From Betaproteobacteria bacterium (lineage in GTDB: Bacteria > Pseudomonadota > Gammaproteobacteria > Burkholderiales > SG8-39): a stretch of 64,000 nt of DNA. Position 1 is the stretch's first letter, and each line of letters begins with the position of its first letter. The stretch is from the NCBI GenBank assembly GCA_004298385.1, contig SCTX01000089.1, forward strand, positions 1 to 64,000. Reading direction: 5' to 3'. Both the position numbers and the translations under genes were made by a program. Of the stretch, positions 4,986-57,004 are shown piece after piece. Under the pieces are notes generated by a model. That model was given only the letters and a program-made list of their open reading frames with translations, was not told where the DNA came from and did not search any database.

Positions 4986-5591
4986 TCAGCGTGGCCCGGG
5001 CGGCCGCGCAGATTCGATCAGCCGGCAAGCAATGGCTATCGAGTTGCGGACTGAGTTCAAGTCACCCACATAGCCGCCGAGCGCTTGCTCCGCCCGTTTG
5101 CGCAGCGAGGCCGAGTCAATGAGGCCTTCTCCGGCAAGCAGCAGAATGTCCTCCCGATCCTGATCCGCAAATCGGGAAAGCTTAGCCACGGCCAAGTCAA
5201 TTGGCGCAAGCACTCTCACATCGATGAGCTTTTTGTCGATCCCAGGAAAGGCGACGGGCTGGGAATCCTTGTGCGCGTCCTCATGCAGCAGACCGAGAGT
5301 GTCGTTGTAATTTCGATCGAGGTACAGGAGGCGCGCGCGGCCATCGGGATCCCGATAGGAAACTTCGATCTCTTCATCGAACAGCACACGCTTCGAAAAA
5401 ACCGCGTCCACGTCCTCCGACACGCGAGCGCCCGTGAGCAGGTGCAGCGCGGCGCCTCCGGCGACATACATCCGTATGGGAAATGCATCGGGCCGCGAAC
5501 CCTTTAGGGTCTGCTGGATTCGCGACAAGACCTCGGTAAAGGCATTCAGGTATGCGTCTTGAGCCTTGATCTTCGGTGTCATGCGAGACAC
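4986..5591 (-). CDS. DUF6036-like nucleotidyltransferase-fold protein, putative toxin
   Basis: IRMYVAGGAALHLLTGARVSEDVDAVFSKRVL...DVRVLAPIDLAVAKLSRFADQDREDILLLAGEGLID. Confidence 0.75.
   Translation of the reverse strand: MSRMTPKIKAQDAYLNAFTEVLSRIQQTLKGSRPDAFPIRMYVAGGAALHLLTGARVSEDVDAVFSKRVLFDEEIEVSYRDPDGRARLLYLDRNYNDTLGLLHEDAHKDSQPVAFPGIDKKLIDVRVLAPIDLAVAKLSRFADQDREDILLLAGEGLIDSASLRKRAEQALGGYVGDLNSVRNSIAIACRLIESARPPGPR
5124..5225. repeat. 102-bp segment duplicated at 6567-6668
   Basis: No indels, 5 mismatches, all transitions. Confidence 0.95.
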
Positions 5592-6156: not shown

Positions 6157-6566
6157 TCTACGGTCCAATTGCATTAATAACCGAATTTTCAGCAGTCGCT
6201 GAAAAATAGCTTAATGGACGCAAATTACGCTAAAGTACCTCATCTACTTATGTTTACACATTTATATACAATAGCTTGGCTAATTTTACCGGGGCATGGA
6301 CCGGAGTACACCGTGATCGGCCGCGTCGCGCGCCGCATCTAAACAGCCTGCACCAACAGCTGTCAACGCGCCCGACGAGGCTGGCGAGCCGAAGGAGCCG
6401 CCCGATCGGTGAGCTTGCCCGGCCACTTTTCGCGGCCTGCGTTATTCGGGTCGGAGCGGTGAACCACTAAAGGTATTTGCCGGATCGCCAGCGCCGCACG
6501 GAAACTGCCGGATGGCGCGGGGCGCAGCGCGGCCGGTGCCGCGGGCGGCGGTTAAACCCTCATGCG

Positions 6567-6668
6567 GCCTTCCCCGGCAAGCAGCGGAATGTCCTCCCGA
6601 TCCTGATCCGCAAATCGGGAAAGCTTAGCCACGGCCAAGTCGATTGGCGCAAACACTCTCGCATCGAT
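6567..6668 (-). pseudogene. Fragment of DUF6036-like nucleotidyltransferase gene
   Basis: Minus translation IDARVFAPIDLAVAKLSRFADQDREDIPLLAGEG; duplicate of 5124-5225. Confidence 0.9.
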
Positions 6669-6720
6669 ACGCTCGGATTTCCTGCTAAGCTAGCTTCGCG
6701 CATTTCCAAGCGGAGGAAGC

Positions 6721-21733: not shown

Positions 21734-21837
21734 GGCAGAGGAGCTTGCGGCGAAAAGAGATGCGTATTATAGCTTGGGAAGATCTGATCAAGGCCGCGCG
21801 CCGATCAGACCAATTGCGGCGCGGGGGTTCTATACAA

Positions 21838-21888
21838 GATCGCCGATCGCGAGCGGATACGCTGTTCATCCGCGCGCGATCGGCGATC
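21838..21888. repeat. 51-nt hairpin, type A
   Basis: GATCGCCGATCGCGAGCGGAT-acgctgttc-ATCCGCGCGCGATCGGCGATC, 21-bp stem with 1 mismatch. Confidence 0.95.
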
Positions 21889-21991
21889 CGCGCGGACGGG
21901 TCGCCGTCCACGCAAGTTCGATCGGCGCAGTTCGGTGTACTCCCCTACGTCGAGCGATGTCGCCGGGCGGTCATTGCGCGCTCCGCGCGCC

Positions 21992-22042
21992 AACCGTGTT
22001 TCCCGTACGGATGAAAAGCGCATCCGTACGGGAAACACGGTT
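21992..22042. repeat. 51-nt hairpin, type B
   Basis: AACCGTGTTTCCCGTACGGAT-gaaaagcgc-ATCCGTACGGGAAACACGGTT, perfect stem. Confidence 0.97.
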
Positions 22043-22093
22043 CTGAATAGACGCAACATCAGCGTGGCCCGATCTAGATCGCCACCCACAAGA

Positions 22094-27530: not shown

Positions 27531-27740
27531 TGAGGTATCGGATTCCCCGCAAATGCCGTCAGGCCCGCATCCTCTGAACCTGCAGTCCAGAGTGGTCGCG
27601 TTCCGGCCGCCGTAGGTACATCCGCAATCGCGCGAGGCGAAGGGACGCGCACAAAAGCGGCGCTAGGGTCCGCAACCTCAGCACATATATTGGTTCAAGG
27701 AATATATGGCCTAAACGAGCATCGCAGGGAAACATTTCGC
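27530..27740 (-). ncRNA. ssrS: Putative 6S RNA
   Basis: Directly downstream of zapA on the same strand, unannotated ~200 nt, contains TTCCTTGAACC and self-complementary ends; context typical of 6S RNA. Confidence 0.6.
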
Positions 27741-28269: not shown

Positions 28270-28504
28270 ACTATAGTTTTAAAAATCGTGACAAGTCAAG
28301 TAATAACACGCAACTCTCAATGCTCTTTCCATGATGAATAAGCCGCCCTATTTGATTGACCCGGCGCACGATTTCGAGGCCGCCGATTTCTTGCCGGACT
28401 GCGCCCGAAGGCGCGCCAGACCGGGCCCTTTTCCGCATGTTCTCGCACCTCCGCGGCCGAAAATTTTTTATTTATCGGCGATACTGTGTAAAATCGCTGC
28501 ACTC

Positions 28505-28690
28505 GTTCGAGGTGTCCGCCGGCGATTCCTGCCGGCGGGTGAAACGGGAAACAGGTACAGCGTGTAGCTACGCTCAAGCCTGTGCTGCCCCCGCAACGGT
28601 AGGTGAGCGCGGGTTTGTCACGATGCCACTGTAAGCAAACGCTTACGGGAAGGCGACAAATCCAATCCCACAAGCCCGGAGACCGGCCTT
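28505..28690 (+). promoter_or_regulatory. Cobalamin riboswitch
   Basis: ggtgaaacgggaaacaggt...caagcctgtgctgcccccgcaacggtaggtgagcg...ccactg...gggaaggcg...aagcccggagaccggcc upstream of btuB. Confidence 0.95.
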
Positions 28691-28812
28691 GCGCGACAAG
28701 TGGAAACACTGCGGGGATGCGGTGCGCCGGTTGCGCTTTCGATTTCCCCCTGCGTTTCCTTCGTTGTTTCAATTGTGCAGCCTGCGGGGACGCCGGCTGT
28801 TGGGGGAAAATC

Positions 28813-47632: not shown

Positions 47633-47719
47633 CTAGAAAAGCTGCTCGCGCCGGCGCACCCGCGCCAGCCGGACTAATGTGAATGTGACCCAAGGGAGCG
47701 GAGACAGGAGGGAGAACTG

Positions 47720-47820
47720 CTCACGCTTCCCTGCGGCGGCATTATCCGCATCAGGTTCAAAGGGACTCTCTCACCCGCACCGCCGATTTCCGGCACTCGC
47801 GCAGGACCCCTAACGTCAGG
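47720..47820 (-). promoter_or_regulatory. TPP riboswitch upstream of thiC
   Basis: Minus: aggggtcctgcgcgag...ggtgagagagtccctttgaacctgatgcggataatgccgccgcagggaagcg. Confidence 0.96.
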
Positions 47821-47976
47821 AGGCCAAGGTACCGCAATCGCTGGTGTTTTGCAATTGCGCAGCGCCCGCTGCAGCGGGCAACCCGCGGCAAGATCCTGTC
47901 CGTGACGATCGGACATTGCGGTTGACGCCCGGGCCGAATCTCTATATATTACTAACCAGTCAGTTATCAATAACCT

Positions 47977-55390: not shown

Positions 55391-55422
55391 GGCAAGCTCG
55401 AGCCGTATTTGCTTTTTTCCAT

Positions 55423-55473
55423 AACCGTGTTTTCGGTACGGATGCGCTTTTTGTCCGTACCGGAAACGCGGTT
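55423..55473. repeat. 51-nt hairpin, type B
   Basis: AACCGTGTTTTCGGTACGGAT-gcgcttttt-GTCCGTACCGGAAACGCGGTT; 3 non-Watson-Crick positions, all U-G in a + strand RNA. Confidence 0.95.
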
Positions 55474-55577
55474 GGCGCGCGATAGCGCGCAAAGCCAGCG
55501 AATGCACCCCAGCGAACAACGGAGATCTCCTCAAGCCACGGTGCCCGAGCTTGCGCGGACGGCGGCCCGTCCGCGCG

Positions 55578-55628
55578 GATCCTCGATTGCGTACGGACGA
55601 TGACCCTGTCCGTACGCAATCGAGGATC
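55578..55628. repeat. 51-nt hairpin, type A
   Basis: GATCCTCGATTGCGTACGGAC-gatgaccct-GTCCGTACGCAATCGAGGATC, perfect stem. Confidence 0.97.
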
Positions 55629-55664
55629 TTGAATAAAACCATAATCGCTTTTGCCTTTATCCAC

Positions 55665-55715
55665 AACCGTGTTTTCTGTACGGATACGCTTTTCATCCGT
55701 ACAGAAAACACGGTT
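55665..55715. repeat. 51-nt hairpin, type B
   Basis: AACCGTGTTTTCTGTACGGAT-acgcttttc-ATCCGTACAGAAAACACGGTT, perfect stem. Confidence 0.97.
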
Positions 55716-55744
55716 CGCGCGCGCAGCGCGCAATGGCCGCCAGT

Positions 55745-57004
55745 CTACGTCGGCGGCAGCAGCCTCTCGCAGATCGCCAGATTGCGCGCTGTTGCACCTT
55801 GATGCGCGCGGCTGAACGCGAGCGCCGCCTGCGACATGCGCGCCAGGGTCGCCCGATCCCCGAGCAACTCCCCCGCCCGCTCTCCCAGCATGGCCGCGTC
55901 GGCGACCTCGATCGCGGCGCCCGCCGCCACGGCCAGCCTGGAGGCCTCGGCGAAGTTATACATATGCCGGCCGAACAGCAGCGCGCGGCCCACGGCACAG
56001 GCCTCGATCAGGTTCTGCCCGCCGTAGGGCAATAGGCTGCCGCCGATGAAAGCCAGATCGCAGGCGGCGTAGTAGGCCGGCATTTCCCCCATGCTGTCGC
56101 CGAGCAGCACGCGGCAATCCGGCGGCAGCGCGCGCGTGTCGCTGCGGCGCAGGTAGCTCAAGTTGCGCTTGGCCAGCAGATCCGCGACCTCGTCGAAGCG
56201 CTGCGGGTGGCGCGGCACCAGCAGCAGCAACAGGCCCTCGACTCGGATGCGCGCGAGCGCATCCAGGACCAACTCTTCCTCGCCCTCGCGCGTGCTTGCC
56301 GCCAGCAGTACCGGGCGTTGCCCGATGCGCCGCTTCAGTTCCGCGCCCAGGGCCAGAAGCTGCGGCGCCAAGGCGACATCGAACTTGAGATTGCCCGTCA
56401 CCTCGACCGCGCGCGCGCCCAGCCGCTCCAGGCGCTCCGCGTCCTCGCGGGTTTGAGCGCTCACCGCCGCCAGGCCGCCGAGCGCGGCGCGGGTTAGCGG
56501 CGCCACCAGCGCGTAGCCGCGGGCCGATTTTTCCGACAGGCGCGCATTGGCAAGAAGCAGCGGTACACCGAGGCGCGTGCAGCATTCGACAAGGTTGAAC
56601 CAGATTTCGGTTTCCATGAGGATGCCCAGGCGTGGCCTGAAGCGCGCGAGAAAGCGCGCCACGGCGCCGGGATAATCATAGGGCAGATAGACTATGGTCG
56701 CTACGCCGCCGTATAGCTGCTGCGCGCTCTCCCGCCCGGTCGGCGTCATCTGCGTGAGCAGCAGTTCATGCCCGGGATAACGCGCAAGCAGCGCGCGTAC
56801 CAGCGGTTCGGCGGCGCGCGTTTCACCCACGGACACTGCGTGCAGCCAGATCACCGGTCGTCCGGGCGTGGCCCGATACCAGCCGAAACGCTCGCGGATG
56901 TGTTCGCGGTAGCCGGGCTGACGCCTGCCACGCCACCAAAGGTGCATGAGCACCCAGGGAAACAGCAGCCGCAACAGCAGCCGATAAGCGAGGCGCCAGA
57001 TCAC
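55745..57004 (-). CDS. waaA: Kdo transferase
   Basis: RPVIWLHAVSVGETRAAEPLVRALLARYPGHELLLTQMTPTGRESA...VTGNLKFDVAL. Confidence 0.95.
   Translation of the reverse strand: MIWRLAYRLLLRLLFPWVLMHLWWRGRRQPGYREHIRERFGWYRATPGRPVIWLHAVSVGETRAAEPLVRALLARYPGHELLLTQMTPTGRESAQQLYGGVATIVYLPYDYPGAVARFLARFRPRLGILMETEIWFNLVECCTRLGVPLLLANARLSEKSARGYALVAPLTRAALGGLAAVSAQTREDAERLERLGARAVEVTGNLKFDVALAPQLLALGAELKRRIGQRPVLLAASTREGEEELVLDALARIRVEGLLLLLVPRHPQRFDEVADLLAKRNLSYLRRSDTRALPPDCRVLLGDSMGEMPAYYAACDLAFIGGSLLPYGGQNLIEACAVGRALLFGRHMYNFAEASRLAVAAGAAIEVADAAMLGERAGELLGDRATLARMSQAALAFSRAHQGATARNLAICERLLPPT

What the first reader, a model, noticed from the sequence alone, without database searches (positions are those of the whole stretch)
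21838..22042. Composite ~205-bp structured intergenic element, copy 1 (argS-priA)
Seen directly: two 51-nt hairpins, each 21-bp stem + 9-nt loop + 21-bp stem, separated by three blocks: a 32-nt block (CGCGCGGACGGGTCGCCGTCCACGCAAGTTCG) with its own GGACGG/CCGTCC stem, a 55-nt spacer, and a small GCGCGC..GCGCGC hairpin. The same order, orientation relationships and block lengths recur in the element at 55423-55628 (51+32+55+17+51 = 206 nt versus 51+32+55+16+51 = 205 nt). The 32-nt block is 29/32 identical and the 55-nt spacer keeps its length but appears unrelated in sequence. No coding or terminator T-tract explanation fits. This is the best candidate here for an undescribed element: a non-autonomous palindromic mobile element or a structured RNA family.
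Basis: seen in the sequence. Interest (0 to 1): 0.85.

Follow-up and report, generated by a model that had tools for sequence, protein, structure and literature searches.

The report
Hairpin-rich miniature transposon family
The two structured intergenic elements are worn copies of an apparently undescribed miniature mobile DNA element, about 275 bases long with four built-in hairpins, which sits in at least 45 places in this uncultured betaproteobacterium and has jumped between genes in its sister species.

Summary
The hairpins are real, and both copies belong to a repeat family present in 15 of 15 genomes of the genus and at 45 places in the host genome. It is the junction (hairpin A, block a, spacer S, block b, hairpin B) between two units of a larger element. 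The complete element is 271-279 nt: left end L, GC hairpin b, 51-nt hairpin B, ~41-nt linker k, 51-nt hairpin A, 32-nt hairpin a, right end R. Dimers are joined by the ~60-nt linker S, which is homologous among copies, not 'unrelated'. The ends are imperfect inverted repeats (TATACGGCGTCTTAAAT / TATACGTGGCGACTTAAAT). Insertions occur at YTAR with TA at both borders, and precise empty sites exist in sister species. This makes it a MITE-type non-autonomous transposon, working like the TA-target Correia/ERIC/RUP kind. Hairpin stems are kept by compensatory double changes with almost no one-sided intermediates in B. Orientation to genes is unbiased and Rfam has no match, which argues against a structured-RNA function. 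No autonomous partner was found: neither Y1/RAYT nor IS630-family genes in the genus carry these ends. I rate it a new variant of a known kind.

The parts
21811..21837 (+). copy 1 (argS-priA): remnant of linker k, right half (..CCAATTGCGGCGCGGGGGTTCTATACAA)
   Evidence: same sequence precedes hairpin A in the G001 orthologue, which still keeps a truncated L tip and the R end; aligned with k
21838..21888 (+). copy 1: large hairpin A (51 nt, imperfect)
   Evidence: family
21889..21915 (+). copy 1: small hairpin a, S-type loop (GGACGGGTCGCCGTCC)
   Evidence: 31 homologous junctions
21973..21991 (+). copy 1: GC hairpin b
21992..22042 (+). copy 1: large hairpin B
22043..22056 (+). copy 1: remnant of linker k, left half
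   Evidence: inverted match 21955-22056 / 55651-55752
55716..55745 (-). copy 2 (tolC-like / waaA, convergent): GC hairpin b and its upstream flank
55629..55664 (-). copy 2: linker k
   Evidence: family linker
55578..55628 (-). copy 2: hairpin A
55550..55577 (-). copy 2: small hairpin a (S type)
55494..55549 (-). copy 2: linker S (diverged)
   Evidence: row L014
55474..55493 (-). copy 2: GC hairpin b
55423..55473 (-). copy 2: hairpin B of the second unit
55395..55422 (-). copy 2: start of linker k (ATGGAAAAAAGCAAATACGG); the rest of the second unit is missing

Best explanation
The two elements are decayed, partly dimeric copies of a MITE-type non-autonomous DNA transposon family. The intact element is L-b-B-k-A-a-R (271-279 nt). 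L and R form an imperfect inverted repeat and carry the recognition sites of a transposase supplied in trans. That transposase cuts at the ends and inserts at YTAR, leaving TA at both borders (SHOWN: ends, target, empty sites; INFERRED: cutting and trans supply). The transposase is most likely an IS630/Tc1-mariner-type enzyme (INFERRED from the TA target only; no partner was found). The interior hairpins b, B, A, a are not needed to explain insertion. The stems stay palindromic while their sequence drifts, probably by DNA-level palindrome correction (template switching) or by selection on a cruciform or single-stranded form (INFERRED). Dimers joined by linker S, and internal deletions between short repeats inside the palindromes, arise during or after replication (SHOWN as structures, INFERRED as process). 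Copies then decay in intergenic space, as at argS-priA. Co-transcribed copies would add long hairpins to mRNAs (possible, untested).
For: Copies: 45 places in the host genome, 54 bB and 45 Aa modules, all modules in a cluster in the same orientation; 15/15 genus genomes; patchy in the family, 27/100 genomes and 8/26 genera. Ends: the left-end pattern with up to 3 mismatches gives 41 hits in 9 of 15 genus genomes and 0 for the reversed control; L and the next R lie 250-299 nt apart in 20 of 29 pairs. Target: 53 left ends give Y 89%, T 79%, A 72% before TATACGG; 42 right ends give CCACGTA, TA, then R 85%. Empty sites: the element in G007:C177 is absent from G000 and G009, where gtggatata|attgc is uninterrupted; the G000:C5 element is absent from G007, G009, G001, G005 (CTTA|GTC, CTTG|GTC); the G001:C83 element is absent from G008 and G013. 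argS-priA: element in G000, G001, G004, G007, none in the other 11; G001 still has the TATATACGG tip and the R end around the same A-a-S-b-B block. Placement: co-directional 30, convergent 11, divergent 1, unresolved 3.
Against: No autonomous element with these ends was found: no L-R pair 600-4000 nt apart in any fetched locus; none of 16 IS630-type (DDE_3) genes in the genus has the ends, and G000, G001 and G009, which carry end-bearing copies, have no DDE_3 hit. Because the ends read TATA..TATA, a TA duplication cannot be told from an insertion without duplication. Some left flanks end in TG rather than TA (19% G at -1). Assemblies are draft MAGs, which lose recent identical copies. In another genus (G015), and once in this genus (L209), the hairpins occur as A-a-16 nt-b-B without L/R ends, which this model does not explain.
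Confidence: 0.76

Rival explanations
1. REP/REPIN/BIME-like repeats: A-a and b-B are two large inverted REPs, moved by a REP-associated tyrosine transposase (RAYT) as single-stranded hairpins, with S, k and a 16-nt linker as BIME-type spacers.
For: Two alternating palindromes with several linker types and arrays; compact A-a-16-b-B form in G015 and L209; Y1_Tnp genes in 12 of 15 genus genomes.
Against: 26 of 27 Y1_Tnp loci carry no A/B hairpin; the one that does (L209) has an A-a-16-b-B copy about 290 nt upstream of an apparent IS200-type gene that has its own terminal palindromes. Stems are 21 bp, against 5-13 bp (GTAG) and 8-9 bp (CGTC) in PMC3733652. There are TA-flanked inverted ends and precise empty sites bounded by them.
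Confidence: 0.15
2. Structured RNA family (sRNA, riboswitch-like or 3'-UTR regulator) conserved for its RNA fold.
For: Very stable fold, z -10.65; strong covariation.
Against: No orientation preference to co-directional genes (about 17 same, 13 opposite); presence/absence between sister species at the same locus; no Rfam match at threshold; no promoter-like site in a full copy; 55 double changes against 1 one-sided G-U cell in B.
Confidence: 0.05
3. Bidirectional terminators or mRNA-end hairpins kept at gene ends by selection.
For: 11 convergent against 1 divergent placements; long hairpins.
Against: The 51-nt stems are not followed by T-tracts; the weak terminator-like matches lie inside the stems. 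Most copies lie between co-directional genes, in both orientations, and are absent in sister species. The bias is also what purging of insertions in promoters would give.
Confidence: 0.04

Closest known systems
Correia/NEMIS, ERIC/IRU and RUP (TA-target bacterial MITEs; PMC2229807, PMC10969869)
   Same: Short, many copies, terminal inverted repeats, TA at the borders, mostly intergenic, base-paired; transposase in trans proposed (IS630-Spn1 for RUP)
   Different: Those are about 100-200 bp; here 271-279 nt with four separate internal hairpins including two 51-nt near-perfect ones, a dimeric form with a conserved linker, and no known partner IS
REP / BIME / REPIN with RAYT (PMC3116915, PMC3733652)
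   Same: Alternating palindromes, several linker types, arrays, high copy number
   Different: Stems of 21 bp rather than 5-13 bp, inverted ends with TA at the borders, no associated RAYT; GTAG/CGTC tags not searched for
TIRtrons / TIRYT-associated TIR families (PMC3733652)
   Same: Repeated, partly self-complementary inverted repeats in dimers or clusters
   Different: None of the 27 Y1_Tnp loci in the genus has these ends

Membership tests
[quoted passage not shown]
   TATACGGCGTCTTAAAT / TATACGTGGCGACTTAAAT, imperfect
[quoted passage not shown]
   TA at both borders, YTAR target and three loci with empty sites; duplication of TA cannot be separated from element ends that read TATA
[quoted passage not shown]
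   G007:C177, G000:C5, G001:C83 and argS-priA
[quoted passage not shown]
   no L-R pair spans more than 450 nt; the 271-279 nt are filled by hairpins and linkers
IS630-mobilised MITE | autonomous IS630 element with the same ends | tested here: not met
   16 DDE_3 genes in 10 genus genomes, none with the ends; none in G000, G001, G009
IS630-mobilised MITE | insertion at TA | tested here: met
   target composition, empty sites; a minority of flanks read TG
REP/REPIN with RAYT | RAYT gene flanked by the repeat | tested here: not met
   26 of 27 Y1_Tnp loci lack it; the exception looks like a neighbouring IS200
REP/REPIN with RAYT | short (20-40 nt) palindrome | tested here: not met
   palindromes of 51 nt with 21-bp stems; definition from PMC3733652
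REP/REPIN with RAYT | terminal GTAG or CGTC tag | not tested
   no dedicated tag search was made
Correia/NEMIS | Correia end sequence | not tested
   no Correia sequence was aligned here
Rfam structured RNA | match at gathering score | tested here: not met
   only sub-threshold hairpin look-alikes
integron attC | R/L boxes and cassette arrays with integrase | not tested
   attC boxes and integrase were not searched for

The most novel reading that the evidence does not exclude
A hybrid element class in which a TA-target transposon with inverted ends carries a BIME-like cargo of large palindromes that is itself a second mobility or amplification unit (the A-a-linker-b-B form seen without ends in another genus), with the palindromes kept perfect by a DNA-level correction or hairpin-processing activity that has not been described.
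Probability: 0.14. Interest if true: 0.75.

Novelty: new variant of a known kind. Interest (0 to 1): 0.5.

Why it matters
It is an abundant, apparently undescribed mobile repeat in uncultured Burkholderiales-level betaproteobacteria (affiliation judged from the named contigs of relatives). It offers a natural data set, dozens of copies in each of many species, for asking how near-perfect palindromes survive while their sequence changes: in hairpin B, 55 double changes stand against 1 one-sided G-U cell and 10 unpaired cells. It also links two repeat kinds usually kept apart, TA-target MITEs and BIME-like palindrome arrays.

Tried and rejected
RAYT association: PF01797 searched in own genome and genus, all 27 loci scanned for the consensus; one hit, L209, looks like a neighbouring IS200. 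IS630 partner: PF13358 in the genus, no matching ends. A longer autonomous copy among fetched loci: none. Rfam: nothing at threshold; mir-4520, mir-214 and similar are sub-threshold hairpin look-alikes. Promoters and terminators: none convincing. Plasmids and phages: no match. Strand preference of stem mismatches as a sign of RNA: B shows no G-T excess, A has a G-T excess at two positions that may come from one sub-lineage, so no conclusion. The idea that the 205-nt block is the mobile unit was dropped after the argS-priA comparison, though the compact form in G015 keeps it open for other genera. A literature search for such elements in Burkholderiales MAGs returned nothing. No covariance model was built; DNA consensus searches were enough.

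Full report
OBSERVATION. The two hairpins, the 32-nt block and the small GC hairpin are at the stated coordinates, and the second set lies at 55423-55628 on the other strand. A BLAST of the 205-nt block against the host genome (3.5 Mb, 169 contigs) gave 110 matching pieces. A pattern for hairpin B gave 26 matches (13 on each strand of what are mostly palindromes) with 0 for the reversed control. I fetched the regions around the copies. Module annotation gives 54 bB and 45 Aa modules at 45 places (my count from the listing, after setting aside isolated fuzzy-motif matches elsewhere in the loci).

ANATOMY. Aligning 23 copies in one orientation shows that the unit is not A-a-spacer-b-B but b-B-k-A-a, where k is a conserved linker of about 41 nt, with further conserved sequence outside b and a. 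The left end L is TATACGGCGTCTTAAATNCCGTCGCATG and the right end R is GGCGCGATTTAAGTCGCCACGTATA. Read inward from each side these are TATACG.GCG.TCTTAAAT and TATACGTGGCGACTTAAAT, an imperfect inverted repeat in which each end is also a small hairpin. The L pattern with up to 3 mismatches hits 41 places in 9 of 15 genus genomes, with 0 for the reversed control. In most complete copies L and R are 271-279 nt apart. Modules always point the same way within a cluster. Two-unit copies exist in which L and R bound A-a-S-b-B arrangements (L003: L Aa S bB k R; L095: L bB k Aa S bB k R). The spacer S, thought unrelated, is alignable in 31 distinct junctions.

HOW THE WINDOW COPIES AROSE. At argS-priA all 15 genomes of the genus were compared. 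Eleven lack the repeat: nine have 83-156 nt between the flanks, while G009 (215 nt) and G002 (321 nt) hold other sequence with short palindromes. G000, G001, G004 and G007 carry it (in G007 the two flanks lie on different contigs). G001 has TATATACGG, the second half of k, A-a-S-b-B, the first half of k and an intact R ending CACGTATA. G000 has the same core and the same k remnant but has lost both ends. So copy 1 is most simply a two-unit insertion that lost its outer hairpins (inference from G001). Copy 2, between a tolC-like gene and waaA (convergent; names judged from the translated ORFs, not tested by profile search), is b-B-k-A-a-S-b-B with the last half-unit missing.

MOBILITY. Three loci have precise empty sites in sister species. 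In G007:C177 the flanks gtggatata and attgc are uninterrupted in G000 (gtggatata|attgcc) and G009 (gtggctata|attg). The G000:C5 insertion is absent in G007, G009, G001 and G005 (aatctta|gtcaat and variants). The G001:C83 insertion is absent in G008 and G013, with diverged target bases. In 53 left ends the flank is Y(89%) T(79%) A(72%) before TATACGG. In 42 right ends CCACGTA is followed by TA and then R (85%). The simplest symmetric reading is a YTAR target with TA at both borders, as in TA-duplicating MITEs. Strictly, duplication cannot be separated from ends that read TATA. One locus (G000:C158) is filled in four species (G000, G001, G007, G009) with different internal deletions, so copies are also inherited and decay in place. 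Some deletions join short repeats inside the palindromes (for example L017 and L106), as slipped replication across hairpins would.

STRUCTURE. A full copy folds with z = -10.65. In 32 distinct B hairpins 98.5% of cells pair, 11 of 21 pairs show changes on both sides and 55 cells carry double changes (shuffles 9.6, sd 2.7, 0/500), while only one cell is a one-sided G-U change and 10 are unpaired. Larger sets agree (84 B, 88 A), except that A has a G-T excess at two positions. The shuffle control does not remove relatedness, but the slid controls also collapse (covariation 0.262 against at most 0.080). Near-absence of one-sided intermediates in B fits DNA-level palindrome correction at least as well as selection on RNA; this is inference.

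CONTEXT. With a simple codon-based gene finder, placements in the host genome are 30 co-directional, 11 convergent, 1 divergent and 3 unresolved; element orientation among co-directional pairs is about 17 same to 13 opposite (counts made by me from that listing). Avoidance of divergent (promoter) regions and lack of orientation bias suit a mobile element filtered by selection, not an oriented RNA.

MACHINERY. PF01797 (RAYT/IS200) genes occur in 12 of 15 genomes but 26 of 27 loci lack the hairpins. The exception, L209, has a compact A-a-16-b-B copy about 290 nt upstream of a gene that looks like an IS200 with its own end palindromes. PF13358 (IS630) genes occur in 10 genomes, none with the ends and none in G000, G001 or G009. 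No L-R pair flanks a gene-sized interval in the fetched loci. The transposase is therefore inferred only from the TA target.

DISTRIBUTION. All 15 genus genomes; 27 of 100 in the family, 8 of 26 genera; 5 of 400 drawn from the order, two of those being short matches near the threshold. Named contigs with the hairpin A core are Burkholderiales/Betaproteobacteria MAGs or bins, with some labelled only Proteobacteria. No match on plasmids or phages. In other genera (G015, G048) modules occur with other linkers and without recognised L/R ends.

COMPARISON. It works like the TA-target MITEs Correia/NEMIS, ERIC and RUP (PMC2229807, PMC10969869). It meets inverted ends, empty sites and no internal transposase; the duplication is inconclusive and a partner IS was not found. 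It is not filed as REP/REPIN: stem length and RAYT association were tested and not met (PMC3733652). The novelty claim rests on not finding it in Rfam, in the papers read, or in the literature searches made; that is limited evidence.

Noticed in passing
L235, L243, L247 (argS-priA intergenic of G009, G012, G002); L209:1298-1321: A second short palindrome, ACAAGGGGGC..GCCCCCTTGT, sits in the same intergenic stretch in three sister genomes that lack the hairpin element: probably another, REP-like repeat family.
   Followed up: no
L228:991-1017, L230:826-860, L231:1052-1086: Palindrome CCAGCTTGAAGTCGCAATTTGCGACATCAAGCTGG (17-bp stem, or its 13-bp core) lies near Y1_Tnp (RAYT-like) genes in three genomes; a candidate for the real REP of those RAYTs.
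   Followed up: no
L187-L193 (G015), L209:1024-1182: Compact form A-a-about 16 nt-b-B without L/R ends in another genus, and once in this one; its mobility unit is unknown.
   Followed up: partly
L234 (G007 argS-priA): The element in G007 is interrupted inside linker k by other sequence of under 100 nt.
   Followed up: no
window 28493-28705 (+), 47711-47821 (-), 27540-27733 (-): Cobalamin riboswitch, TPP riboswitch and 6S RNA, all above Rfam thresholds.
   Followed up: no
window 5119-5230 and 6562-6673: 112-nt direct repeat, 93% identical, 1443 nt apart.
   Followed up: no
L127:1552-1621: Hairpin B resembles the miRNA precursor family mir-4520 (E 7e-10 but well below the gathering score), on both strands; taken as a chance palindrome look-alike.
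   Followed up: no
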